Of a DNA stretch of 45,128 bases, positions 1,589-13,696 are shown one piece after another (positions within the stretch are counted from its first letter, which is position 1; each line of letters starts with the position of its first letter). The notes under the pieces are model-generated. The model saw only the letters and a list, made by a program, of their open reading frames with translations. It was not told the DNA's origin and searched no databases. Source of the stretch: Planctomycetota bacterium (GTDB lineage Bacteria; Planctomycetota; MHYJ01; JACPRB01); contig DATLZA010000107.1 in NCBI GenBank assembly GCA_035574235.1, positions 1-45,128 on the forward strand, read 5' to 3'. The translations under genes were made by a program, and so were the position numbers.

Positions 1589-2710
1589 ATGAAGCTGCTT
1601 CTTCTCTGGGCGGTTCTGGGGGGCGGGGACGGTCTCGGCGAGGACGATTTCCGCAAACTCCATGAGGCGCTCCGCCCGCCCTCCCAGGAGGCGTGGCGCT
1701 CGATTCCCTGGAAGGTTTCCCTGGTCGAAGCGCAGAACGAGGCGGCCCGAAGGAAGAAGCCGCTCTTCCTCTGGTCGATGGACGGAAACCCGCTCGGTTG
1801 CGGCTGAAACAACGTCATCCTCGACCGTGCGTCGACCTTCAGCGATCCCGAGGTGATCTCGCTCGTGCGGGAGAAGTGCGTCGCCGTGGCGATCGATCAG
1901 TGGTATCACCGCCGCCAGAAGGACGCGGAGGGGGACTTCTACCGCAAGGTGGCCGCCCAGGCGCCTTACTTCAAGGACTTCAACCAGACCACCCAGGGGC
2001 TTTACCTCTGCGACGCGTCCGGAAAGCTCCTCGCGTGGACCAACCACCGGTCGCCCGAGCGGGTCAAGGAGATGCTGCGGCGCGGCCTCGACGCGTTCGT
2101 TCCCGCCGAAGCGCCGCTTCTGGAGAATCCGAGACCCGACCCGGACTTCAATTTCAGGCCCCCGGCGGGAGGGCTCGTGGTGACGGTGACCTCCAAAGTC
2201 CTCGAAGGCTACGAGCCCGCGGACGACGCCGTCACGCGGGCGTTTCAGGAGTCGCTCGGCCGCGACGTCCTCTGGGTGCGCAAGGACGAGCACGAGGCGC
2301 TGGCCCGCGGGGAGTTTCCGGCCACGCTCGGGCGGCGGATCGCGCGATATCATCTCTTCGACAACACCCGCGGAGAGCCTGCGCCCTGGCCGGCCGAAGC
2401 GGTCCGGGCGGCCGAGTTTTTCCTTCGGGACGGCGTCCTGACCGGCCGGGTTCATCTCGAAACGCCCGACGGCCGGCTCGGTTACCGCGCGGATCTGCGC
2501 GGCCGGATCGAAACGGCGGAAGGGCGCGTGACGCGTTTCGACCTTGTGGCGCGCGGCGCGGCCTGGGGCCACAGCGGATGCACCGAGGCGGCCGCGCCCA
2601 AAGACCGCTTCACTCTGGGGATCGCCTTCCGGCTGGCCTCCGGTCAGGACGAAGCGGATCGCGTGATGCCGCAGGGCGCCAAGGCGTGGTTGCCGGAGTA
2701 CCTCCGCTAG
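1589..2710 (+). CDS. Probable selenoprotein: exported thioredoxin-like protein with in-frame UGA (Sec73)
   Basis: Frame analysis gives 373 residues if the TGA at 1805-1807 is read as selenocysteine. The stretch before it is thioredoxin-like (KKPLFLW, residues 56-62) and leads into GNPLGC-G-U, so Sec73 sits two residues after Cys71 where a thioredoxin-fold protein carries its redox pair. Coding continues in the same frame after the UGA with unchanged composition for 300 residues, and there is no good start codon for about 45 bases after it. A 5-bp hairpin with a G in the second loop position follows at SECIS distance. The ATG at 1589 is preferred over an upstream GTG because AGGGGG lies just before it and MKLLLLW begins a short signal-like segment. 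The C-terminal 250 residues are not recognised. A nonsense mutation is the main alternative. Confidence 0.8.
1805..1835 (+). promoter_or_regulatory. Candidate bacterial SECIS element after the UGA codon
   Basis: After UGA (1805-1807) a perfect hairpin forms: UCGAC (1821-1825), loop CGUGC (1826-1830), GUCGA (1831-1835). The loop begins 18 bases after the UGA and has G as its second base. Published descriptions of bacterial SECIS elements require a short apical loop with a G in its first two positions about 16-37 bases from the UGA, and this hairpin meets them. The 5-bp stem is short, so chance formation in GC-rich DNA cannot be excluded by eye. Confidence 0.65.
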
Positions 2711-2828: not shown

Positions 2829-4085
2829 TTATTTTTTCACCGCCGCCCGAACCACGGCCGCCGCCGGCCCCAGCCCCGGTCCCGCGGGAACCGGCGTTCC
2901 CTCCCCGAACGGCAGCGCCGCCGCCCGCACCGCCAAATTCACGACGACAAACGAAAGCGCCGGCACCAGGAAATACATCGCCGACACCCCCAGGAAAAGA
3001 TTCTCGATTCCCCACCCGCCCGGCTCGAACGCCTCCAGCGACGACCGCCGCGACGTGAAGGCCGTCAGCGCCGACCAGCCCACCGGCCAGAGCTTCATCG
3101 AGACGAACACCTTCCCGTAACTCACCAGCGTCCCCCACCGGCCCGGCAGAAGCGCCCAGAGCCCCGCCACCGGAAAAAGCCCCGCCCACAGCATCAGCGA
3201 CAGCCCGTAGATCGCCGGTCCGTAGGAGACCGCGATGTAATACTTCTGCTTGGCCGAGAACCGGTCCGTCACGTCCTGCGAGAGCGCCGCCACCCCCGAG
3301 ACGACGAAATTCACCGCCTTTTCGAGAAAGCCGGGCGCCCCCTCCCCCACCGACTGCCCTTCCGCCGTCCACGAATAGCTCCCCAGCGCCTCCGCCGCCA
3401 GGCGCATCTCGTGCGTCGGACTCCCCGGATCGTCCACCGCCCGCCGCGCGACCTCCTCGAGGTACCGCTCGCGAAACTCCCGCAGGCGCTCCGGCTCGCG
3501 CCGCCGAACCGCCTCGAGCGTCGCGCGATGAATCGGGTCCCCGTCCACGTGTTCCCGGATCCGCTTCCACAGCTCCGCCCGCGCGCGCTCGCAGGGCTCC
3601 GTGTAGGGAAGCGCGCCCTCCCGGAAAAGATTCGCCCCCCGAGGCTCCGCGACCGCCAGCGCCGGCTTCGCGCAGGCCTCGAGGAATTCCGCCGCGTCGT
3701 TCCCGAGCCCCGGATCCACGATCCTCGCCCAGGCCGCCATCGCCGACACCCGCTCCCATTCGAAAGGAGCCGTCAGAAAGTCCTCGTTGATCGCCTTCAC
3801 CGCGCGCTTCTGGAGAACATCCGCCGCCTGCCCCAGATATCCCACGAACCGCGGGACTTTCATTTCCTGCATCGGGGCCGGCGAAAGAAGCCACCACGCC
3901 AGGAAAAGATAGAGAACATGCACCCCCAGACCGGATACGCCGCCCCGCTCCGCCATCCGCCATACCGACGCGGCCACTCCTCCCAGTCCGAGAAGCAGCG
4001 GCACCCCCGCCGCGGAGAAAAGCTCCATCAGGCGCCCGGCCAGCGAGTAGCCGGCGTACTCGAAAACGGTGTCGACCGTGCTCAC
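2829..4085 (-). CDS. traG: TraG N-terminal-domain-like inner-membrane protein of F-type T4SS
   Basis: A 418-residue membrane protein resembling the N-terminal half of F-plasmid TraG. Hydrophobic segments cluster at residues about 27-75 and in the last third (about 285-405), flanking a soluble middle with the family-like stretch from VPRFVGYLGQAADVL to FEWERVSAMAAWARIVDPGL. F TraG is roughly twice as long because it adds a C-terminal mating-pair-stabilisation domain; that part is absent here. The GTG start overlaps the end of the TraC-like gene (GTGA), so it is the last gene of the minus-strand Tra arm. It converges on the selenoprotein gene with about 118 bases between the two stop codons. 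The assignment to this family is good; the exact role is inferred. Confidence 0.75.
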   Translation of the reverse strand: MSTVDTVFEYAGYSLAGRLMELFSAAGVPLLLGLGGVAASVWRMAERGGVSGLGVHVLYLFLAWWLLSPAPMQEMKVPRFVGYLGQAADVLQKRAVKAINEDFLTAPFEWERVSAMAAWARIVDPGLGNDAAEFLEACAKPALAVAEPRGANLFREGALPYTEPCERARAELWKRIREHVDGDPIHRATLEAVRRREPERLREFRERYLEEVARRAVDDPGSPTHEMRLAAEALGSYSWTAEGQSVGEGAPGFLEKAVNFVVSGVAALSQDVTDRFSAKQKYYIAVSYGPAIYGLSLMLWAGLFPVAGLWALLPGRWGTLVSYGKVFVSMKLWPVGWSALTAFTSRRSSLEAFEPGGWGIENLFLGVSAMYFLVPALSFVVVNLAVRAAALPFGEGTPVPAGPGLGPAAAVVRAAVKK

Positions 4086-6424
4086 GCCCCCGCCAGCTCC
4101 CGGAGCGCCGCGCGCAGGTCTCCGCCCTTCTCCCGCACCGCCGCCTCCAGCCGCAGATTGTCCTTCGGGTCCGTGGTCGAAACCCAGTATCCCATCGGGT
4201 CCGGCACCAGCCGGGCCACCCCCCGCGTCTCCGTGGACTGAAGAAGCATTTCACTGAACTTCCCCTTCACCGTGCGGATCCGCCCGAGAAGCGCCTTCTC
4301 CTCCGGCGAAAGATCCAGCAGCTTCTCCATCGCCAGCACCGTCTCCGGCGTCTGCTGGAGAAACACCCGGTTCGGCGCGTTCGCCCGGATCGCCTCCCCC
4401 GTCCGCCCCTCGAAGTCCGTCACCTGCTGCGTCACCATGATCGCCGCCGCGTTCAGCTTCCGGTACGTCCGCAGCACGTCCTCCAAGAACTGCGCCGTCG
4501 TCGCGCTCTTCAGCAGCGTCCAGGCTTCGTCCACGATGAGATACTTCTGCACCTCCAGATGCGTCCGGGCGTACTCCGTGATCCGGTGGATGAGCGCCAT
4601 GAGAAGGACGCTCGCCACGTCCTTGCGCTTGGCCACATCCCCCAGCTCGTAGACGGTCAAGAGCCCCCCCTCGTCCGGCGCCGCGGGCCGGTCGAAGAAG
4701 CCCGCGTACGCCCCCTCCCCCGTGAACATCTCCAGGCAAATCGCCAGGTCCCGCGCCGCCGCTTCCGCATCCTCGGAAAGCGCGCGCCGCACGTCCCCGA
4801 TCCGCACCTCGCGGCCTCCCGCCCCCTCGAAGGCCCGCACGATCGCGCGCGCGACGAGGCTCCGCTCCTTCACGGTAAGCTCCCGCTGCCCCTGCGCGCA
4901 CATCTCGGCGACGATATCGGTGAGAAAGAGCTTCTTCTCCTCGTCCAAGGCCGTCCCGCAGGGATTGATGCTCCGCGGCGCCCGGGGATCGAACGCCACA
5001 TACGTCCCCCCGAGGATCGAACAGAGCTTCCGATAGCTGTTGCCGCGGTCCAGGACGAACACCCGCGCCCCGCGGCGCGCCGCCGAGAGGATGAGATGGT
5101 TGGCGAAGACGCTCTTGCCCGAACCCGACACGCCCGCCACGATCCCGTGCGGCGCCACCGTGGAGTCGAAAAACGAAAACGTCACCGGCTCCCCTCGGCG
5201 GTTGACGAGCAGGAGATCCGGCGTGGGCGTCCCCTTGAGCGCCCCGTAGAACGGCAGCAGGTGGGCGAGATTCAGCCCCAGGAGACGCCGGCCCCGGCGG
5301 AGCGCCCGGTCGTTGGCCGGATCGTACGCCAGGGGAAGCGCCTGAAGGAAAAGCGTGCCCGCCAGGGACGCCTCCCGCACCATCTCGACGCCCACCCGTG
5401 AAAAGGCGTTCACCGCTCCGTCCGCGCCGTCCCACGTCAGAAGATGCAGCCGCGCCGCATACACCCGCGCCCCTTCCGTGAAAATCTCCGCCTGGACCCG
5501 GTCCACCTCCTCCTTCATCGCGGCCACGTCCGCCTTGTCGTCCCCTCCGGACAGCTGGCAGAAGGCCAGGCGCTTCTTGGCCGCCAGGAACCGCCGCACC
5601 TCCTCGACCCGGCAGACCTCGACGTTGAACGCGAAAATCCCCTCCAGCGCCGCGTCCAGAGGCAGCATTCCCGCCCAGGTTTCCCGCGGAGCCTCCCGCG
5701 CCGTCAGCACCGAAAGCGTCCGGCCTCCCAGCCGAAGCGACGCCTCCTCGATCTCCGCAGGGGTGAACGCCAGGCCCTCGCGCAGAAGGGACGCCCCGTC
5801 CTCCGGCGGCGCGGGCGCCTCCCTCCCGGGATTGAGAATCCCGTAGACGAGCGCCCGGAACGCCCCGAGATCCAGGCGCGAGAAGCCCGCGCCCATCTGC
5901 GTCAGCAGATTCTCGAGCGCCTCGCCCCGCTCCAGAAGCGCTCCCTTCTCCCGCGCGTAGGCCCCGTGGAAGCGCGCCTCGATCGTCCGCTCGCCCCGCA
6001 GCGTGTACCGAAGCCCGTCCGCCAGTCCCGGCGCCCGCCAGGCCGGAAACGTCCGCAGCGTCACGAAAAGCCTGAGCGTCCGAGCCGCAAAGAGCGTCCC
6101 CTCGTGCCGGATCTCGAACGACCGCGTCGCCCGCGCGCGGGCCTCCGCCAGGTCCCGCAGAAGCCCGTCCCCGGTGGTCGCCGCCATCCACCGGCTCAGA
6201 TCCGGAGCCCGCGCGCTCACCAGCAGGAACTGCGCCGCCGCGCCCTCGGGGAAAAGCGCCAGAAGCGCCTCCACCCGCCGCGCCACCTGCCCGAGCGCCG
6301 TCTCGGAAGCCACCTCGCCTTCGGGCGGCTCCACGCGCCAGGCCAGGCCCAGCGACCCGTCGCGCTGGACGAAGACGGAGCCGTCCGGATCGTACGAGTG
6401 ATAAGGCAGAAGCTCGGGAAACAT
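4082..6424 (-). CDS. traC: TraC/VirB4-family conjugative ATPase
   Basis: A 780-residue TraC-like ATPase that powers pilus assembly in F-type type IV secretion. The Walker A motif GVSGSGKS lies at about residues 431-438, followed by FVLDRGNSYRKL, which is typical of VirB4/TraC. Walker B is YLIVDEAW at about 628-635. A MVTQQVTDF segment and the C-terminal region also match the family. The ATG at 6424 overlaps the TraV-like stop; a GTG one codon upstream would give the usual GTGA overlap and cannot be excluded. F TraC is about 875 residues, so this is slightly shorter but complete. It is the most secure member of the locus and the best query for defining its relatives. Confidence 0.93.
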   Translation of the reverse strand: MFPELLPYHSYDPDGSVFVQRDGSLGLAWRVEPPEGEVASETALGQVARRVEALLALFPEGAAAQFLLVSARAPDLSRWMAATTGDGLLRDLAEARARATRSFEIRHEGTLFAARTLRLFVTLRTFPAWRAPGLADGLRYTLRGERTIEARFHGAYAREKGALLERGEALENLLTQMGAGFSRLDLGAFRALVYGILNPGREAPAPPEDGASLLREGLAFTPAEIEEASLRLGGRTLSVLTAREAPRETWAGMLPLDAALEGIFAFNVEVCRVEEVRRFLAAKKRLAFCQLSGGDDKADVAAMKEEVDRVQAEIFTEGARVYAARLHLLTWDGADGAVNAFSRVGVEMVREASLAGTLFLQALPLAYDPANDRALRRGRRLLGLNLAHLLPFYGALKGTPTPDLLLVNRRGEPVTFSFFDSTVAPHGIVAGVSGSGKSVFANHLILSAARRGARVFVLDRGNSYRKLCSILGGTYVAFDPRAPRSINPCGTALDEEKKLFLTDIVAEMCAQGQRELTVKERSLVARAIVRAFEGAGGREVRIGDVRRALSEDAEAAARDLAICLEMFTGEGAYAGFFDRPAAPDEGGLLTVYELGDVAKRKDVASVLLMALIHRITEYARTHLEVQKYLIVDEAWTLLKSATTAQFLEDVLRTYRKLNAAAIMVTQQVTDFEGRTGEAIRANAPNRVFLQQTPETVLAMEKLLDLSPEEKALLGRIRTVKGKFSEMLLQSTETRGVARLVPDPMGYWVSTTDPKDNLRLEAAVREKGGDLRAALRELAGA

Positions 6425-6804
6425 CACGGGCTCCGATGGGGAACGACCACCCGATCCCACTCCAGTCCCCGGAGCGGCCGGAGCGCCTCCGCCGGCGCCT
6501 CGCCGTCCGCGGGCGGCTCGGGATCCATCCCGCGCTCGGTGAACCACTCCGCCTCCCGCAGCCGGAAGAAAATCCAGTGCTCCCCGATCAGGAGATCCCG
6601 GTCCGCGTGGGAAGGAACGTACGCCGCGAAAACCTCCGGGGCGGCCAGGACGGGGATCCGGGCCTCCCGCCTGAGAGGCGAAGGCGCGTCGAACACCCGG
6701 AGCTCGTGCCCCGATCCGTAGGCCTCCGCCACGGACCGCCCCGACGGCGCCGCCAGCCCGCATCCCGCCCCCAAAAGAAGAAGCCCGACCGGAAGCCCTT
6801 TCAT
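6424..6804 (-). CDS. traV: TraV-like outer-membrane lipoprotein
   Basis: A 126-residue predicted lipoprotein starting MKGLPVGLLLLGAGC, with the likely lipidated Cys at residue 15. The C-terminal half carries the pattern VFAAYVPSHADRDLLIGEHWIFFRL ending in EAEWF, which resembles the conserved end of TraV, where a segment with acidic residues precedes a short beta strand and a Trp. TraV anchors the TraK-TraB core complex in the outer membrane. The ATG at 6804 overlaps the TraB-like stop (ATGA) and its own stop overlaps the TraC-like start. Position between traB and traC matches the F plasmid order. TraV proteins diverge quickly, so part of this call rests on position. Confidence 0.72.
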   Translation of the reverse strand: MKGLPVGLLLLGAGCGLAAPSGRSVAEAYGSGHELRVFDAPSPLRREARIPVLAAPEVFAAYVPSHADRDLLIGEHWIFFRLREAEWFTERGMDPEPPADGEAPAEALRPLRGLEWDRVVVPHRSP

Positions 6805-7865
6805 CGCGCTCCTCCCTCCCGGCGATCCAGCCCCTCGAAGGGCGACGGCCCTCCTCCCTCGGGCGGCGGATAGCCCTCGAGCGTCGCCCCGCCGATGAAC
6901 GCCACCGTCACCCGCCGGGCGTTCGGCACGTAGATCGCCGGAACGATCTCCTCGAGCCTCCGCGAAACCGCCTCGCTCAGACGTCCGAACGCGCTCGAGA
7001 CCGCCCGGGCCCCCGCGAAGCGCACGGGGTCTCCCGTCACCGCTCCCTGAAAGCCTCCGAGAGGCGTGGCCTGAAGCGTCGTCTCCCGCTGCGCCGCCGC
7101 TTCCGCGCCCCCGGAGAGACCTCCCGTCAGAGCCGAAAGCGTCAGAATCTCCTCGGTGCGCCATACGTAGTGTCCCCGCAGTCCCTGGATGCCGTCCTCG
7201 TCCACCACCCAGCCGTTCACGCGCGCCTCGGAGGGTTTGCCGTCCGGCCGCACCGCGCTCAGCGTTTCAAGCTGCACCACGGCGCGGCGGGAATTGGCGT
7301 CCCCCTGGGCCTTGCCCACCAGGAACGCCCCCGCCAGCGGCACCCGCGAACGCTGCGGCCCGACGAGCGCGGCGTCGAGCCGGAGAAGCACCGGCAGCGC
7401 CTCGCCCGTCGTGGGGGCGAAGACGCCGGTCAGAAGCGTCGCTTCTCCGAAGCTTCCCGCGGGGACATGCACCGACCGTCCGGGGACCTTCTCGAACTCG
7501 AACGTCCGGAACCGCGGGGGCGGCGGCGCCGGCGGCTCGGACGGCGGCGCTTCGGGCCGAAGCTCCCGCAGAAGTTTTTCGAGGCTCGACGCCTGCTGCC
7601 GGCCGCTCTCCTCGAGGCGCTTGCGGGTCTCCTCGAGCTGCCCCCGAATCGCCGCGATCTCCCGTTCGGCGGCTTCCACGCGCTCGCCGTACACGGCCAG
7701 CATGTTGCGCACTTCCTGGGCGGTGGGAAGGCCCAGATCGAACGATCCCGCGCGGGAATCCGCCTTCGCGACCGGAGCCGGCGACCCGCCCCGCGGAGAG
7801 GCGAGGACCGCAGCCGCCCCGAGAAGAACCACTCCCGCCCCGCCCCAGAGAAGCCTTCGCTTCAC
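6801..7865 (-). CDS. traB: TraB/VirB10-like channel protein
   Basis: A 354-residue protein with the TraB layout: a short cytoplasmic start (MKRRLLW), one transmembrane helix (about residues 7-23), a coiled coil (about 48-100), a proline-rich spacer (PPSEPPAPPPPR, about 103-114) and a beta-rich C-terminal domain (about 118-350) with the family-typical VHVPAGSFGEATLLTGV and NGWVVDEDGIQGLRGHYVWRT stretches. In F-type systems TraB spans both membranes and forms the channel with TraK and TraV. The GTG start overlaps the TraK-like stop (GTGA). Length is shorter than F TraB (475 residues), mainly in the linker. A confident family call. Confidence 0.88.
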   Translation of the reverse strand: MKRRLLWGGAGVVLLGAAAVLASPRGGSPAPVAKADSRAGSFDLGLPTAQEVRNMLAVYGERVEAAEREIAAIRGQLEETRKRLEESGRQQASSLEKLLRELRPEAPPSEPPAPPPPRFRTFEFEKVPGRSVHVPAGSFGEATLLTGVFAPTTGEALPVLLRLDAALVGPQRSRVPLAGAFLVGKAQGDANSRRAVVQLETLSAVRPDGKPSEARVNGWVVDEDGIQGLRGHYVWRTEEILTLSALTGGLSGGAEAAAQRETTLQATPLGGFQGAVTGDPVRFAGARAVSSAFGRLSEAVSRRLEEIVPAIYVPNARRVTVAFIGGATLEGYPPPEGGGPSPFEGLDRREGGAR

Positions 7866-8518
7866 GGCGCCTTCCAGAAGACGAAGTAGAGGAGCGTCTC
7901 CTTCCCGGGCCCGAGCACCATCTCGCGAGCCCCCGCCAGAACGAGATCGCGCCCTGCGAACCGCGAGGGATCGAGCCGCCGCGTTCCTCCCGCCACATTC
8001 CGCGCCCGGAGCACGTATCCTCGGAAGGACGCCGTGTCGTACACCCAGGCGAGCCGAAGAGAAAGCTCCGGCGGCCCCTCGAGGGGCGCGTCCGCCTTCC
8101 ACACCGCGCCCTCGACCGGACGCCTTCCCAGGCGCATGGTCCGCAGAAGCTCGACCGGCTCCGGAACGCCGCGACTCCCCCGGGGAGCGGGGCGCACGAT
8201 CCGCACGTGGCCGTCGTACGACCCCGCCGCCGGCCGCACGGCCAGGCGATAGAGCGCGCCCGACGCGCCCAGAACGTGCAGATCCCCCTCGACCGGCCGC
8301 AGGAGCTTCAGGAACAGGTTCTCGCGCCGCCGCTCGATCGAGAGGTCCCCTTCGTTCCAGCCGGCCACGAGGGCCTCGAGCGCTTCTTCCGGAAAGCTCA
8401 CCACGGTCGCCGGATGGCGCCCCTCCGCCGACACGGGCACGCGAATCTCGACCGCGCCCCCGGAAGCCGCGACCTCGCGGGCCTCCTGCAAGAGCGCGAG
8501 AAGCGCCAGGGCGATCAC
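7862..8518 (-). CDS. traK: TraK/VirB9-like secretin-type core protein
   Basis: A 218-residue exported protein beginning with a hydrophobic segment (VIALALLALL) and continuing with an N-terminal beta domain resembling TraK (IRVPVSAEGRHPATVVSFP) and a C-terminal beta domain. TraK forms the outer-membrane ring of the F-type core and binds TraB and TraV. The GTG at 8518 is chosen because it gives the GTGA overlap with the upstream VKOR-fusion stop, as at neighbouring junctions; the next gene starts inside its own stop in the same way. Order K-B-V-C matches the F plasmid. Sequence similarity is moderate, and position adds weight. Confidence 0.78.
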   Translation of the reverse strand: MIALALLALLQEAREVAASGGAVEIRVPVSAEGRHPATVVSFPEEALEALVAGWNEGDLSIERRRENLFLKLLRPVEGDLHVLGASGALYRLAVRPAAGSYDGHVRIVRPAPRGSRGVPEPVELLRTMRLGRRPVEGAVWKADAPLEGPPELSLRLAWVYDTASFRGYVLRARNVAGGTRRLDPSRFAGRDLVLAGAREMVLGPGKETLLYFVFWKAP

Positions 8519-9228
8519 GATCCCGCCTCCCGGATCGCCGCCCGCAGGGTCTCCAGCGTCGGCAATCCCTCGATCACGCGTCCCGTCCGGTCTTGGCGCG
8601 CCGGGGCCACGATGAGGGTCGGCGTGCGGCGGACGGCCGGAAGATCCCGCGCGGGCCGCAGGACGATCTCCAAGCGGTCTCCGAATTCCTTCCGGAGCAC
8701 GGGAAGCACTTCGCGTTCCAGCTGATCGCAGTAGCGGCAGTCCGGCTGCGTGAAGACGGTCAGGCGCGTGGTTGCGGCGGGCGCGGATCCGGCGGGGCTG
8801 GACGAGAGCGCCGCGCGCGGCGCGCCGCCCCAGGCGAGAACGGCCAGCACGGACCAGGGCAGAAGGAGCGCCAGGCGCGCGAGATTCTCCCGATCGCAGG
8901 CCACCGAGAGCGCCGCCAGGGCCGCCGAAAGTCCCGCCGCCGAAAAGCAGATCCAGCAGGTCAGGCCGGCGGAGACCAGCTGAGCCACAAGGAGCACATG
9001 CACGCCGAATCCGAAAAGAAGCGCGGCGAAGAGGAAGCGCGTGGGCCCCGCGAAGACGGCGGCGAGGAAAAGCCCCGTGTAGAAGGCGAACCCGACCAGT
9101 CCCAGCGAGAATCCGCCGGCCCGGCAGGCGCCGCACGGGTAGGTCCATTCGAGCGTGGCCGCCGCGCCGGCCACGAGCGCCTGGACCGCCAGGACGGCCA
9201 CGAGCGCCTTCCACGCCCGGCCGTTCAC
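8515..9228 (-). CDS. VKOR-like disulfide oxidase fused to a thioredoxin domain
   Basis: A 237-residue membrane protein that probably makes and passes on disulfide bonds in the periplasm. Residues about 8-135 look like a vitamin K epoxide reductase (VKOR) domain of several transmembrane helices, with a loop pair C32-G-A-C35 and the active-site pair C91-W-I-C94. After a short linker, residues about 154-237 form a thioredoxin fold with FTQPDC-R-Y-C (C164, C167) and the cis-proline region RTPTLIV. Bacterial VKOR-thioredoxin fusions replace DsbB/DsbA. The gene lies between the pilin and traK with GTGA overlaps on both sides, so it is part of the Tra operon; F-type systems usually supply this function through TrbB/DsbC. 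The likely client is the Cys-rich TraU-like protein. Confidence 0.86.
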   Translation of the reverse strand: MNGRAWKALVAVLAVQALVAGAAATLEWTYPCGACRAGGFSLGLVGFAFYTGLFLAAVFAGPTRFLFAALLFGFGVHVLLVAQLVSAGLTCWICFSAAGLSAALAALSVACDRENLARLALLLPWSVLAVLAWGGAPRAALSSSPAGSAPAATTRLTVFTQPDCRYCDQLEREVLPVLRKEFGDRLEIVLRPARDLPAVRRTPTLIVAPARQDRTGRVIEGLPTLETLRAAIREAGS

Positions 9229-9506
9229 AGCGGCACCTGGAAGAGGGACGTCAGGAGCTTCGGGAAAAGGGCCAGCGCCACGGCCGCCAGCGTGCAGATG
9301 GCCGCCATGTCCCACTCGCCGCGCTTGACCCCCTTCCCGATGACGCCGTGCAGGAAACAGTACGCGGCGCAGACCGGAAAGATCCACTTCACGATCACCT
9401 TGAGAATGGAGCCGAAAACGCCGCCGGACGTGTTCGCCAGGTCGTCCGCGGCGGCGGTTCCCGCCGCGCCGAGCAGCGCCGCGGCGGTCCAGAGCGCGAG
9501 CTTCAT
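9225..9506 (-). CDS. VirB2/TraA-like pilin precursor
   Basis: A 93-residue protein with an N-terminal signal peptide (about residues 1-20, ending in AAA) and two hydrophobic helices (about 33-55 and 67-87) separated by a short basic loop (GKGVKRGEW), the layout of TrbC/VirB2/TraA pilins. Such pilins are inserted in the inner membrane and assembled into the conjugative pilus. It is the first gene of the minus arm, with a strong Shine-Dalgarno (AGGAGG) a few bases before the ATG, as expected for an abundant subunit. The next gene overlaps it by 4 bases. Pilins have little sequence conservation, so the call rests on architecture and position. Confidence 0.78.
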   Translation of the reverse strand: MKLALWTAAALLGAAGTAAADDLANTSGGVFGSILKVIVKWIFPVCAAYCFLHGVIGKGVKRGEWDMAAICTLAAVALALFPKLLTSLFQVPL

Positions 9507-9558
9507 GAGGTCCTCCTCTCGAGCCGTCCGTTCCGGCTGTGCGCCGCGGACGCGCCGA

Positions 9559-9584
9559 CTCGACGCCCGAAAATCCGCGTCGAG
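9559..9584. promoter_or_regulatory. Perfect 8-bp inverted repeat between the two Tra operons
   Basis: CTCGACGC (9559-9566) and its exact complement GCGTCGAG (9577-9584) flank a 10-base spacer holding the only A-run in the 116-base divergent region (GAAAAT). Its position between the start codons of the pilin and traL genes suggests an operator controlling both arms. No convincing -35/-10 pair was found for either arm. A transcribed hairpin is the alternative. Confidence 0.45.
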
Positions 9585-9622
9585 CCGGAAGGCGGTCCGC
9601 GCACCTGCCCCGTGGAGGCCGC

Positions 9623-9985
9623 ATGAGTTTCCGAAAGCCGTGCCCGCGGACGCTCGACCGGCCGATCGTCCTTTTCGGCCTGGAACCGGACGAGTTCGTG
9701 GCCGTGGGGCTCGGCGCGGGAGCGATCCTCTTCCTGTGGGACGGCGTGCCGGCGGTTCTGGCCGGGGCGGTCCTCTGGGTGGGTCTTGCCCGGATCAAGG
9801 CGGGAAAACCCCCCGGGCATCTCTATGAGCTTCTCTATCGATCCGGCCTGCTCGGCCGGATGCCGGGATTCCTGCGCGCTCCCCATCTGGTGCCGCGCCG
9901 GGTCCGCGCGCTCGATCCTTTTCCGGGAGCCGACGATGCCGCCGCCCGAGAGTACTGGTTCGACCGTCCCCTGCTGGATCCGTGA
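9623..9985 (+). CDS. traL: TraL/VirB3-like inner-membrane protein
   Basis: A 120-residue protein resembling TraL: a short polar start (MSFRKPCPRTLDRPIVLFGLE), a hydrophobic hairpin (about residues 25-55), then a basic segment (ARIKAGKPPGHLYELLYRSGLLGR) that matches the conserved TraL pattern in which the chain returns to the cytoplasm. TraL/VirB3 works with the TraC/VirB4 ATPase during pilus assembly. The ATG at 9623 is chosen over an upstream in-frame start because the TraL similarity begins there. It is the first gene of the plus arm; the next start follows only a few bases after its stop. Confidence 0.85.
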   Translation: MSFRKPCPRTLDRPIVLFGLEPDEFVAVGLGAGAILFLWDGVPAVLAGAVLWVGLARIKAGKPPGHLYELLYRSGLLGRMPGFLRAPHLVPRRVRALDPFPGADDAAAREYWFDRPLLDP

Positions 9986-9989
9986 GGAG

Positions 9990-10121
9990 GTGGACCGATG
10001 GAAGCGCCGGTGGCCCGCGGCGATTCTGGCGGCCGCTCTGGCGGCGCAGGCGCTGGCGTTGGCCGCGCTCTGGGCCGCTTTGGGCTCGGCGCCGCCGCCG
10101 GTCTTCTACGGCCTCCCGTGA
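9990..10121 (+). CDS. Small 43-residue single-pass membrane peptide between traL and traE
   Basis: A GTG-started frame of 43 codons begins 4 bases after the traL stop. The peptide has a basic amphipathic start (VDRWKRRW) and a long Ala/Leu-rich helix (residues about 9-30). Third codon positions are almost all G or C, as in neighbouring genes, whereas the competing frame starting with ATG at 9998 has many T-ending codons and gives a Gly/Arg-rich sequence unlike a protein. Its stop overlaps the traE GTG (GTGA), matching the coupling pattern of the locus. Its own Shine-Dalgarno is poorly placed for the GTG, so the start is uncertain. Function is unknown. Confidence 0.5.
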   Translation: MDRWKRRWPAAILAAALAAQALALAALWAALGSAPPPVFYGLP

Positions 10122-10624
10122 TCGTCGGAACGCTTCTCGTTTCCAACCTTCTTCTGGCGGCCGGACTGACGGCGCGGGCGCTCGCCCCCCGCCCGGTCCG
10201 GATCGTCCCGTCGGCGCGCGCCGAGGCGACGCTGTTCCCCGGCGTCGTTCCCCAGGAAGCGCTCCGGGAATTCGCTCTCCGGTATGTCCTTCACTTCGAC
10301 AACTACACGCCGGCCACGATCGAGGAGACGACGCGCACCCTCCGGAAGATGATCGCCGCCCGCTCCTGGAGCGGCGCCGCCGAAGCGCTCGAAAAGCGCC
10401 GCCAGGTGGCGCTCGAGGGGCGCATGTCGTCCCAGGTCCTGCCGCTGCGGGTGCAGGCGGAGGGATCGCGCGTCACGGTCGAAGCGATCCGGCGGACGTT
10501 CATCTCCGACCGGCTTTCGCGCGAAGCGCGCGTGCGCTACGAAGTGACGCTCGAACCGCAACCGCCGACGGACGCGAATCCGTTCGGACTCGGCGTCGTG
10601 GCGCAGGAGATCCATGAGCTTTAG
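10118..10624 (+). CDS. traE: TraE-like (VirB8-type) T4SS protein
   Basis: A 168-residue protein with an N-terminal membrane helix (VIVGTLLVSNLLLAAGL), then a periplasmic domain containing the TraE-like stretch FALRYVLHFDNYTPATIEETTRTLRKMI. TraE is a VirB8-type assembly factor of F-type systems (F TraE is 188 residues). The GTG at 10118 is chosen because it overlaps the preceding small gene as GTGA and the membrane helix begins there. A longer version from ATG 9998, which has an excellent AGGAGG 7 bases upstream, would add 40 Gly/Arg-rich residues with atypical codon use; that Shine-Dalgarno may instead serve the small membrane gene. The stop overlaps the next start by 11 bases. Confidence 0.78.
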   Translation: MIVGTLLVSNLLLAAGLTARALAPRPVRIVPSARAEATLFPGVVPQEALREFALRYVLHFDNYTPATIEETTRTLRKMIAARSWSGAAEALEKRRQVALEGRMSSQVLPLRVQAEGSRVTVEAIRRTFISDRLSREARVRYEVTLEPQPPTDANPFGLGVVAQEIHEL

Positions 10625-11093
10625 ACGCTTCGTTCCCTCGATTCTCGCCGCCGCGGCGGCGGTGGCGGCCGCGCGCGGAGAGTCCGTATGCCGTCACGGG
10701 ACAACCGGAGCGACCCGTCCCGTGTCGCTCGCGGCGGTGGCCCGGGCGCAGGAGGAAGTGACCCGAAAGCTTTCCGAGGCGTTCGGCGACGTGGGAAAGC
10801 TCGATCCGGCGGCGCCCTTCGATTCGGGCCTGCCGGCCTGCGCGGGACGGCGCGAGCGTCGCGCGGCGGTCCGGATGCCCCCGGAGCTCGTGGGGCGGAC
10901 GTTCGCCTTCGCTCCCGAGGGGCGTTTTCCGGCGGCCGACGTCCGGGTGGCGACCTCCTGCCGGCGGCTGATGGACGCGGAGGCGGACGCGCTGGCGGAC
11001 CCGGAGCTTGCGGGTCGGTTGGGCGTCCGGTGCACGCCCACGTGGGTGAGGGTGCGATCGGAGGAAGAGCTTGAGCTGGTGGAAGATCCTTAG
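10614..11093 (+). CDS. TraW/TrbC-like periplasmic conjugation protein
   Basis: A 159-residue exported protein with a signal peptide (about residues 1-22) and a Cys just after it. The C-terminal part (ADPELAGRLGVRCTPTWVRV) resembles the thioredoxin-like end of TraW and F-type TrbC, where a segment meaning 'the chain adopts the right form' ends in CTPT or VPT followed by a beta strand. These proteins act in pilus assembly together with TraU, whose homologue is the next gene. A Shine-Dalgarno (CAGGAG) precedes the ATG at 10614, which lies inside the end of traE. It could not be decided by eye whether TraW or TrbC is closer. Confidence 0.62.
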   Translation: MSFRRFVPSILAAAAAVAAARGESVCRHGTTGATRPVSLAAVARAQEEVTRKLSEAFGDVGKLDPAAPFDSGLPACAGRRERRAAVRMPPELVGRTFAFAPEGRFPAADVRVATSCRRLMDAEADALADPELAGRLGVRCTPTWVRVRSEEELELVEDP

Positions 11094-11895
11094 CGCGGCG
11101 GCGCTTCTGGGGCTTCAGGACCGCCTGCCGTACGAAGGTACGCTCACGGCGGCGACGCTCATTCCGAGGATGGACGTGACGTGCCTTCTTCGGACCTGGA
11201 AGATCAAGGGCATCCTGGTCTGTCCGTGGAGGGGGGACCGGTACGCGTGCCTCTGGGTGGAGAACGCGTATCCGTGCGGGATTCTCGAGGTGGTGCGGCA
11301 GCCGTTCCGGAGCCATCTTGCGGAATTTCCGAGACTCCCGGGGCGGATCGGATCGTCCGGCCATCGGGAAGGGAACCTGCAGTTCGCGGAAGGACGCGTC
11401 CTCACGTTCGTTCCGCCGCTCGTGCAGAATCTCGAAATCCCGATCGCCGCGCCGCGAAGCCGGTATCAGCTGAACTACGTCTCGGAGCTGGACGCCTTCG
11501 GGTGGAGGACGGGGCTCCTGGACCTTCTTTTCGCGCGGCCGGGCGACTGCATGGGAAACTGGGGCTGCGCGGTACCGCGCTCGGGGTTCGTGCTTCAGCA
11601 GAGCGAAGTCCTGGCGGCCCACCTTCAGGCGATCCGGGCTGGGAGGGTGGCGGCGCGGCCCTGGGGCCGCGTGGTGATCTATCCCTACGCGTACGAGCCG
11701 CGGCTGGGGCACTTCGTCCAGATGGCGGCGCCGGCCGTCAAGGCGTGCGTTTCCATCGGGCATCCCGATCTGGCGGCGCTGGAGCGGGGGTCCGGTTCCC
11801 GTCCCGGCGCGTATCTTTTCGTTCATTGGGGTCTTTTCGAAGCGTGCCGGCGGTGCCTGCCCGTGCGCTTCCTGCCCCCGAGGCCGCCGCGGTGA
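11071..11895 (+). CDS. traU: TraU-like Cys-rich periplasmic protein
   Basis: A 274-residue exported protein resembling F TraU (330 residues), which is needed for DNA transfer and is rich in disulfide bonds. About ten cysteines are spread over the chain, including pairs near DVTCLL, ILVCPW, GDCMGNWGC and EACRRC. The C-terminal pattern YEPRLGHFVQMAAPAVKACVSIG, followed by FVHWGLFEACRRC, matches the conserved end of the family. The start is a TTG (11071), supported by GGAGGAAGAGC directly upstream, and lies 23 bases inside the previous gene. The many cysteines make it a likely client of the VKOR-thioredoxin fusion encoded in the other arm. Confidence 0.82.
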   Translation: MSWWKILSAAALLGLQDRLPYEGTLTAATLIPRMDVTCLLRTWKIKGILVCPWRGDRYACLWVENAYPCGILEVVRQPFRSHLAEFPRLPGRIGSSGHREGNLQFAEGRVLTFVPPLVQNLEIPIAAPRSRYQLNYVSELDAFGWRTGLLDLLFARPGDCMGNWGCAVPRSGFVLQQSEVLAAHLQAIRAGRVAARPWGRVVIYPYAYEPRLGHFVQMAAPAVKACVSIGHPDLAALERGSGSRPGAYLFVHWGLFEACRRCLPVRFLPPRPPR

Positions 11896-13346
11896 GGTGG
11901 TGGGACGCTCGGGCGCGGGCGCACGCGGCGCTCCTGAGCGCCCATGCGGCCGCGGTGGGGGCGACGGCCGACGACGGGCCGCTGCGCTGGGGGGCCTGGT
12001 CGGGCGCGGCGCTCCTGGCCGGACTCGTCCTTCGACCGCCGGGAGGAGTCCGCGCGGGGAGCGATCCCTTGCTCCTCGGGGAGATCCCCTGTCGGTCCGA
12101 AGGTTTTCTCGTCGGCCGTGGGTACGAATGGACTTCCGCCGCCGCGCAGGAGGCGCTGGAGCAGGGCCGTGCGGCGCCGCGTCCGGAGGGGGATCTGGTT
12201 CTCCCCGCGTCCCTCTTCGAACAGCACGTTCTCATCCTCGGAACGACCGGAACCGGGAAGACGCGGCTTCTCGAACTTCTGGCGCTTCAGGCCGTGGCGC
12301 GCGGCGAGACGACGGTGGTGATCGATCCGAAGGGCGATGACGGCCTCGAAACGCGCATCCGTCGGGCGGCCGGGGACCGCTTTCGTCTTTTTTCCCTGCC
12401 GCACCCGCGGCGGAGCGTGCGGTACAACCCCATCGGCCGCTATCGGGACGTGCGCGAGGTGGCGGACCGGATCGCGGCGCTCCTGCCCTCCTCCGGGGAC
12501 GCGCTTCCCTTCCGGAATTTCGGCTGGGAGATCGTCCACACCGCGGCGCGCGAAATGCACGGGCGGACGCCCATGACGCTGCGGAATCTCAAGCGCGCGG
12601 CGATCGACCGGCCCGTGGGGCCTCTGGCGGCGCGCCCGCGGGAGCATTACCTCAAGACGGCCAGCGCGCTGATTCCCGTCCTTTCGAAGCTCGCGACGGA
12701 TCAGCTTTCGCCCGAGGACGGCGGGCTCACGTGGGAAGCCGCCGACGAGGGCCGCTGGGCGGTCTATTTCTCGCTTGGGAGCCTCCTCGGATACGAGACG
12801 GCCTCGGCGGTGGCGAAGATGGCGCTTCTGGATCTTCAGTCCTACGTGGGGGGCCGGTACGCCTATGCGAAAGGGCGGACTCCGATGTGGCTTTTCGTGG
12901 ACGAACTCGGGGACGTGGCGACGCCGGAGCTCGTGAACCTTCTTAATAAAAGCCGGGGCGCGGGGCTGCGCGTCGTGGCCTGCGGCCAGACGGCGGCGGA
13001 TCTCGAAGCGGCGCTCGGAAGCCGGGCGCGGGCGCTGCAGGCGCTGGGGAACGCGAACACGGTCTTCCAGTTCCGGGCCCAGAGCGCGCCCGACGCGGAG
13101 GTCTTCGCGCGGATGGCGGGCGAGAGGCTTCTTCGCACCCGATCCGAAGGGGCGGCGTACGAACCGGCGCTTCTCGGATCGGGGTTCCGGACGGTGGACG
13201 ACTTCCGCGCGCGGTTCTCGGAATCGTTCGAGTGGCGGGACCGGCCGCTTGTGCCGCCCGCGGCGCTCGTGGAGCTTCCGCGATTCCACTACTTCGCGCG
13301 CTGGGAGGGCCGGGTGTACCGGGGGCGCACGGCGCTCGTGTCATGA
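11892..13346 (+). CDS. traD: TraD/VirD4-type coupling protein ATPase
   Basis: A 484-residue FtsK-like ATPase of the type IV coupling protein family, which brings substrate to the secretion channel. Walker A is GTTGTGKT (residues 117-124), next comes VIDPKGDDGLE, Walker B is FVDELGDV around Asp337, and a VVACGQTAADLEAALG segment with the typical coupling-protein glutamine motif follows. The GTG start overlaps the traU stop (GTGA). It is shorter than F TraD (717 residues) and has at most a weak N-terminal hydrophobic segment (about residues 30-48), so the usual two-helix anchor may be reduced. A coupling protein implies that a substrate, DNA or protein, is handed to this machine even though no relaxase is visible. 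Confidence 0.88.
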   Translation: MRWWDARARAHAALLSAHAAAVGATADDGPLRWGAWSGAALLAGLVLRPPGGVRAGSDPLLLGEIPCRSEGFLVGRGYEWTSAAAQEALEQGRAAPRPEGDLVLPASLFEQHVLILGTTGTGKTRLLELLALQAVARGETTVVIDPKGDDGLETRIRRAAGDRFRLFSLPHPRRSVRYNPIGRYRDVREVADRIAALLPSSGDALPFRNFGWEIVHTAAREMHGRTPMTLRNLKRAAIDRPVGPLAARPREHYLKTASALIPVLSKLATDQLSPEDGGLTWEAADEGRWAVYFSLGSLLGYETASAVAKMALLDLQSYVGGRYAYAKGRTPMWLFVDELGDVATPELVNLLNKSRGAGLRVVACGQTAADLEAALGSRARALQALGNANTVFQFRAQSAPDAEVFARMAGERLLRTRSEGAAYEPALLGSGFRTVDDFRARFSESFEWRDRPLVPPAALVELPRFHYFARWEGRVYRGRTALVS

Positions 13347-13696
13347 TCTGGATCCCGTGGATCGCGGCGGCGGTGGGAGCCGGGTGGCTTTTCGGACGCG
13401 GAGACGCGGCGGAGAACTTCCGGCGGCTGGAGGAATCCGCGCTTCGGGAGGGACTTCTCGCCCTCCTCGGGGTGACGGGGGGCATGTGCCTTCGCGACCG
13501 CGTGCGGCTGGGAAGAACGTACGCCTCGCCGACGGCGGCTTATGTCGGGAAAGCGCTCTTCATGGCCGCGCTCGGAGGGGCGGCGGCGTACGCGTTCTCG
13601 CCGGTCGCCTGGCCGGCGCGCGTCCTGGACGCCCTGGCGGCCGCGGCGGCGCTGGGGTCGGCGCTCTGGCTGGGCAACCTCCCGCGGAGACTCTGA
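13343..13696 (+). CDS. Small membrane protein at end of Tra operon
   Basis: A 117-residue protein of unknown family with an N-terminal hydrophobic segment (MIWIPWIAAAVGAGWLFG), a soluble stretch with one Cys (MCLRDRVRLGRTY, about residues 50-62) and two further hydrophobic segments (about 70-85 and 90-108). The ATG overlaps the TraD-like stop (ATGA), so it belongs to the plus arm and could be a membrane partner for the coupling protein, whose own anchor looks reduced. That role is inference from position only. The glycosyltransferase gene downstream is separated by 55 bases. Confidence 0.72.
   Translation: MIWIPWIAAAVGAGWLFGRGDAAENFRRLEESALREGLLALLGVTGGMCLRDRVRLGRTYASPTAAYVGKALFMAALGGAAAYAFSPVAWPARVLDALAAAAALGSALWLGNLPRRL

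What the first reader, a model, noticed from the sequence alone, without database searches (positions are those of the whole stretch)
2829..13696. Compact F-type secretion locus without relaxase, TraF, TraH or TraN
Seen: 14 genes in two divergent coupled arms encode pilin, TraL, TraE, TraK, TraB, TraV, TraC, TraG (N-terminal part), TraU, a TraW/TrbC-like protein, a TraD-type ATPase and disulfide chemistry, but no relaxase, oriT, integrase or partition gene. Flanks are chromosomal-type genes and GC is uniform. Inference: a domesticated or streamlined machine for DNA release or uptake, protein delivery, or a chromosomal element whose processing genes are elsewhere.
Basis: partly seen in the sequence, partly recalled or inferred. 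Interest (0 to 1): 0.85.

Follow-up and report, generated by a model that had tools for sequence, protein, structure and literature searches.

The report
Immobilised F-type secretion machine in Planctomycetota
A Planctomycetota bacterium carries an intact gene set for a conjugation-like export machine that has lost the DNA-cutting enzyme needed for conjugation; the locus seems to have sat in the chromosome since before several genera split, so it is probably a mobile element that became a resident (and in some relatives decaying) secretion system.

Summary
Window 2829-13696 carries 14 tightly coupled genes in two divergent arms (TraG-N, TraC, TraV, TraB, TraK, VKOR-Trx, pilin | TraL, small TM, TraE, TraW/TrbC-position protein, TraU, TraD, DUF4400/Yaa-like). 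TraC, TraB, TraL, TraE, TraU and TraD pass Pfam cut-offs; TraW and pilin are positional assignments only. The genome (99% complete) shows no MOBH, MOBF or MOBP relaxase, no TraH and no TraN by profile search, and a single TraC.

All four other held genomes of the same family have the locus. In G001 and G002 TraU also abuts TraD without a relaxase. A more distant family member, G004, has the same two-arm layout with a MOBH relaxase between TraU and TraD and a serine recombinase nearby, and also lacks TraH and TraN. TraC divergence tracks the species marker Mfd in G002 and G003, and shared flanks link the sites. So an ICE-like ancestor probably lost its relaxase before these genera split and was then inherited vertically.

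Relatives show damage (G003 lacks TraD and has an insertion; the G001 contig lacks the core), so decay is a serious rival. Export of protein by the intact copy is inferred. MOBless MPF_F loci are a known class (PMC3158045); this is a new variant.

The parts
2829..4085 (-). TraG N-terminal-domain protein (418 aa), inner-membrane channel component
   Evidence: NCBIfam PRK13735 only 0.11 alone; TraG_N in 4 of 6 aligned family members, best 2.2e-17
4082..6424 (-). TraC/VirB4-type ATPase (780 aa), Walker A GVSGSGKS
   Evidence: PF11130 4.7e-16, P-loop_TraG 1.2e-31, TIGR02746 6e-92
6424..6804 (-). TraV-like lipoprotein (126 aa)
   Evidence: PF09676 0.055, below cut-off; lipobox; same position in relatives
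6801..7865 (-). TraB/VirB10-like scaffold (354 aa)
   Evidence: PF03743 2.4e-20; PDB 7spb TraB 1e-10
7862..8518 (-). TraK-like outer-membrane core protein (218 aa)
   Evidence: PF23536 TraK_C 1.9e-4, below cut-off
8515..9228 (-). VKOR-like membrane protein fused to a thioredoxin domain (CGAC, CWIC, CRYC motifs): disulfide formation
   Evidence: PF13098 2.8e-5 for the Trx part; VKOR-like motifs by eye, Cys positions
9225..9506 (-). putative pilin (93 aa, signal peptide + two TM helices)
   Evidence: position; 65% identical over 69 aa to G003; no profile hit; weak non-significant fold match to H-pilus
9507..9622 (.). divergent intergenic region, presumed promoter region for both arms
   Evidence: 116 bp between divergent arms, a similar gap in G003; promoter activity not tested
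9623..9985 (+). TraL (120 aa)
   Evidence: PF07178 5e-9
9990..10121 (+). small single-TM protein (43 aa)
   Evidence: small TM ORFs of 61-75 aa at the same place in G002, G003, G004, G044; coordinates
10118..10624 (+). TraE (168 aa)
   Evidence: PF05309 5.9e-9 on the longer ORF; start chosen
10614..11093 (+). TraW/TrbC-position protein (159 aa), presumed periplasmic
   Evidence: position before TraU and conservation in relatives; no profile or fold match
11071..11895 (+). TraU (274 aa, 9 Cys)
   Evidence: PF06834 1.2e-6, TIGR03756 2.7e-7; Cys count
11892..13346 (+). TraD coupling ATPase of SXT type (484 aa)
   Evidence: TIGR03743 SXT_TraD 6e-81; Walker A GTTGTGKT
13343..13696 (+). DUF4400/Yaa-like small inner-membrane protein (117 aa)
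   Evidence: PF14348 0.021 alone, 0.003 best in family; follows TraD as in SXT-type elements

Best explanation
This is a chromosomally fixed, relaxase-less type IV secretion system of the F (MPF_F, SXT-like) kind. It descends from an integrative conjugative element whose MOBH relaxase sat between TraU and TraD. The relaxase (and presumably the recombinase) was lost before several genera of this Planctomycetota family separated, leaving TraU and TraD in one coupled operon. In this genome the channel, ATPase and coupling-protein genes are intact, so the machine can plausibly still assemble and be energised. Shown here: gene content, genome-wide absence of three relaxase families, orthologous relaxase-less loci, species-like divergence. 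Inferred: assembly, substrate and target. I hold the historical part at about 0.75 and the 'still selected, protein-exporting' part at about 0.5 or less.
For: No PF03432, PF07514 or PF08751 in the 99%-complete genome. G001 and G002 also have TraU abutting TraD (1-nt gap; 4-nt overlap) without a relaxase. G004 has TraI_2/MOBH (2.5e-20) between TraU and TraD plus a serine recombinase. TraC identity to the window is 63% (G002) and 62% (G003), the same as Mfd at 63% and 63%, whereas G004 is 44% against 59%. Linked sites: DegT and GT beside the locus in G001 (81%, 79%); OMP-MFS-HTH genes about 6.6 kb away in the window and beside TraG in G003; the ECF-AsmA-PolX neighbourhood in both G002 and G003. 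TraC tree groups window+G002+G003 at 99/99. TraC dN/dS about 0.30 against 0.31 for the flanking MFS gene, with dS near saturation, and no stop in any Tra ORF compared. A DUF4400/Yaa-like gene, a companion of MOBH systems (PMC4207684), is retained.
Against: Every other locus of the clade shows damage or is incomplete: G003 lacks TraD and has an insertion between TraV and TraC, the G001 contig lacks the TraC N-terminus to TraW, and TraB/TraK were not found in G002. TraF, TraH and TraW are required for transfer and piliation in F-type plasmids (PMC10939261) and TraH is absent here. No substrate or effector gene was identified. All the genomes appear to be fragmented MAGs.
Confidence: 0.5

Rival explanations
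1. A fossil ICE in slow decay: the relaxase and integrase went first, and the remaining Tra genes survive in this genome by chance with no present function.
For: Relatives show loss of TraD and an insertion flanked by an 11-bp repeat (G003), a core deletion (G001) and missing TraB/TraK (G002).
Against: All 14 window ORFs are intact with coupled starts, the relatives' Tra ORFs have no internal stops at 37-86% protein identity, and dN/dS is 0.09-0.68, in several genes near that of flanking chromosomal genes. Neutral decay over genus-level time should have left frameshifts.
Confidence: 0.32
2. A helper machine: it still transfers DNA, serving mobilizable elements or an unbinned plasmid that bring their own relaxase.
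For: TraD is retained and is of the DNA-coupling SXT type; mobilizable elements are thought to use T4SS in trans widely (PMC3158045).
Against: Three relaxase families absent from the genome; G003 keeps most of the channel but lacks TraD.
Confidence: 0.12
3. An ordinary ICE whose relaxase and integrase were missed because the assembly broke or because the relaxase family is unknown.
For: 203 contigs; only 2.8 kb of left flank on the contig; three relaxase families tested, not all.
Against: Chromosomal-type genes lie on both sides of the locus; the place where G004 has its relaxase is closed to a 4-nt overlap in window and G002; no flanking direct repeat longer than chance.
Confidence: 0.06

Closest known systems
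MOBless T4SS, including MPF_F members (Guglielmini et al. 2011, PMC3158045)
   Same: Chromosomal T4SS gene cluster without a relaxase, proposed there to be recruited to protein transport.
   Different: Here in Planctomycetota, compact without TraH/TraN, and with comparative evidence for vertical inheritance across genera and for a MOBH ancestor.
SXT/R391-type ICE (R997 locus fetched)
   Same: TraD of SXT type followed (one gene on) by a DUF4400 protein; TraL-E-K-B-V-A, TraC and TrbC-TraU components.
   Different: R997 has MobH and TraN; its genes are not in two divergent arms; TraC is only 28% identical.
Gonococcal Genetic Island T4SS (PMC4207684)
   Same: F-type, mostly MOBH-associated, Yaa after TraD, Dsb-type protein, genes in two directions.
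   Different: GGI keeps TraI, TraF, TraH and TraN, all needed for DNA secretion; here TraI, TraH and TraN were not found.
G004 locus of the same bacterial family (contig C149, L012/L016)
   Same: Same two-arm order with TraU, TraD, the DUF4400-like gene, VKOR-Trx and TraK-B-V-C-G; no TraH/TraN found.
   Different: Has a MOBH relaxase between TraU and TraD, a serine recombinase and two extra genes between the arms.

Membership tests
MPF_F type IV secretion system | At least five F-type-specific genes in one cluster (rule of PMC3158045) | tested here: met
   TraL, TraE, TraC, TraU above Pfam cut-offs, TraD by strong NCBIfam hit, TraK at 2e-4; Pfam/NCBIfam used, not CONJScan profiles
MPF_F type IV secretion system | Class I F-specific subunits TraF, TraH, TraW (PMC10939261) | tested here: inconclusive
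   TraH absent genome-wide; TraW-position protein unconfirmed; TraF not searched genome-wide
Integrative conjugative element | Relaxase | tested here: not met
   PF03432, PF07514, PF08751 absent from genome
Integrative conjugative element | Integrase and attachment-site repeats at the boundaries | tested here: not met
   No recombinase seen among the gene calls of the contig (by eye, not profile-scanned); longest flanking direct repeat 14 bp, within null
MOBless T4SS | VirB4 plus type-specific genes without a nearby relaxase | tested here: met
Protein-secreting T4SS (pT4SS) | Demonstrated protein substrate; in TXSScan only MPF_T and MPF_I types (PMC4793230) | not testable with these tools
   No effector known; MPF_F is not among the pT4SS types of that model
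Domesticated, vertically inherited locus | Shared chromosomal site and species-like divergence in relatives | tested here: met
   genera g1-g4 of one family
Domesticated, vertically inherited locus | Present function for the host | not testable with these tools
   Only indirect: intact ORFs and dN/dS below 1

The most novel reading that the evidence does not exclude
A domesticated F-type machine, without relaxase and without the TraH/TraN subunits, kept by selection in a Planctomycetota family for contact-dependent export of protein, the first such function for the MPF_F class.
Probability: 0.3. Interest if true: 0.75.

Novelty: new variant of a known kind. Interest (0 to 1): 0.52.

Why it matters
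Protein-exporting T4SSs recognised by TXSScan are of the T and I types only (PMC4793230), and recruitment of MPF_F has only been suggested (PMC3158045). A relaxase-less F-type locus that tracks its hosts across genera, with a relaxase-bearing relative in the same family, gives a before-and-after pair for studying how a conjugation machine becomes a resident one. It also suggests that F-type machines can exist without TraH and TraN, which are needed or important in F plasmids and the GGI.

Tried and rejected
TraW/TrbC identity of 10614-11093: no Pfam hit in five family members, hhalign to the R997 TrbC-family protein only a 19-column match, AlphaFold model of pLDDT 63 with no PDB match. Pilin: hhalign to R997 TraA nothing; model pLDDT 61; H-pilus match not significant. 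dS as a clock: third positions are near saturation, so only used as supporting. Attachment-site repeats: none beyond chance. The G044 424-aa protein (L014 15633-16907) looked TraH-like by eye but PF06122 does not match it. G005's locus (38% GC contig) was set aside as possibly foreign. Laying the whole genome in the Python box was not available, so genome-wide tests were limited to the twelve searches. The idea that lack of TraH/TraN marks domestication was rejected, because G004 lacks them too. In the tree the G355 row was a wrongly picked frame and should be ignored.

Full report
Gene content. The window is one whole contig (C107, 45,128 bp) of a 203-contig genome, 99.3% complete with 4.7% contamination. 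The locus 2829-13696 has two arms diverging from a 116-bp gap. Nearly all neighbouring genes overlap by 1-23 nt. Pfam and NCBIfam confirm TraC, TraB, TraL, TraE, TraU and TraD; TraK, TraV, TraG and the DUF4400-like last gene are weak alone but recur in order in relatives. The pilin and the protein before TraU are named from position only. A VKOR-like/thioredoxin protein in the operon fits a Cys-rich TraU (9 Cys).

What is missing. The genome has one F-type TraC and no match to PF03432, PF07514 or PF08751 relaxases, none to TraH and none to TraN. Other relaxase families and TraF were not searched genome-wide. No recombinase was seen among the contig's gene calls and no flanking repeat exceeds chance.

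Relatives. TraC-bearing loci occur in all five held genomes of the family and one other of the class, and in 12 of 392 sampled genomes of the phylum. The named records among them are Planctomycetota MAGs labelled NC_groundwater. G001: DegT and GT beside the DUF4400-like gene (with other genes between), TraD and TraU as in the window, but TraU runs into the last 118 codons or so of TraC followed by TraG; the core is absent, and TraB, TraK, TraE, TraL and TraW were not found elsewhere in that genome. This may be a deletion or a misassembly. G002: two contigs, one ending after TraG-TraC-TraV and a further gene, the other with DUF4400-like, TraD, TraU, TraW, TraE, small TM and TraL, TraU and TraD overlapping by 4 nt. 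G003: TraG-TraC at one contig end, TraV to TraU at another; both ends carry the 11-bp repeat ATGCGCTCTCC next to inverted-repeat-like ends, so an insertion sequence probably lies between TraV and TraC; TraD was not found. G004: same two-arm order with a MOBH relaxase between TraU and TraD and a serine recombinase beyond TraD. G044, from another family, has a fuller locus with a TraF-like protein.

History. TraC identities to the window (G002 63%, G003 62%) equal those of Mfd (63%, 63%); G001 is 85% over a fragment against 72%; G004 is 44% against 59%. The TraC tree joins window, G002 and G003 at 99/99 with G004 and G044 outside. Shared flanks chain the sites together: window-G001 by DegT and GT, window-G003 by an OMP-MFS-HTH group, G002-G003 by an ECF-AsmA-PolX neighbourhood; the last is read from translations by eye, the first two from BLAST. 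The simplest history is one ancestral site, relaxase loss with a clean TraU-TraD junction, then vertical descent with separate damage in some lineages. dN/dS values (TraC 0.30, flanking MFS 0.31) agree, though dS is near saturation.

Function. Intact ATPases and coupling protein argue for a working exporter in this genome. Without a relaxase, self-transfer is not expected. Protein export is the fate proposed for many MOBless T4SSs (PMC3158045), but no substrate was found, and F-plasmid work makes TraF, TraH and TraW essential (PMC10939261), so whether the machine assembles at all must be tested. The relaxase-bearing G004 locus lacks TraH and TraN as well, which suggests, without proving, that this lineage of machines works without them. 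Decay with no function is the main rival.

Noticed in passing
L014 9559-12594 (G044), also L064 (G251) and L066 (G160): TraC homologs in other Planctomycetota families carry an insertion of roughly 175-330 residues between window-TraC positions of about 464 and 567; its nature was not determined.
   Followed up: partly
L013 (G005 contig C72): A TraC locus on a 38% GC contig in a MAG of the same class; the same genome has a MOBF relaxase on another contig. Possibly foreign or misbinned.
   Followed up: no
L059 5771-6229 and L015 4793-5296: An ORF6N-domain gene (for L059) lies beside the Tra locus in G003, where TraD is missing, and a look-alike lies beside it in G001.
   Followed up: no
window 1853-2710: Protein without a Pfam hit with several diverged copies near the locus in G002 (L020, L010).
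   Followed up: no
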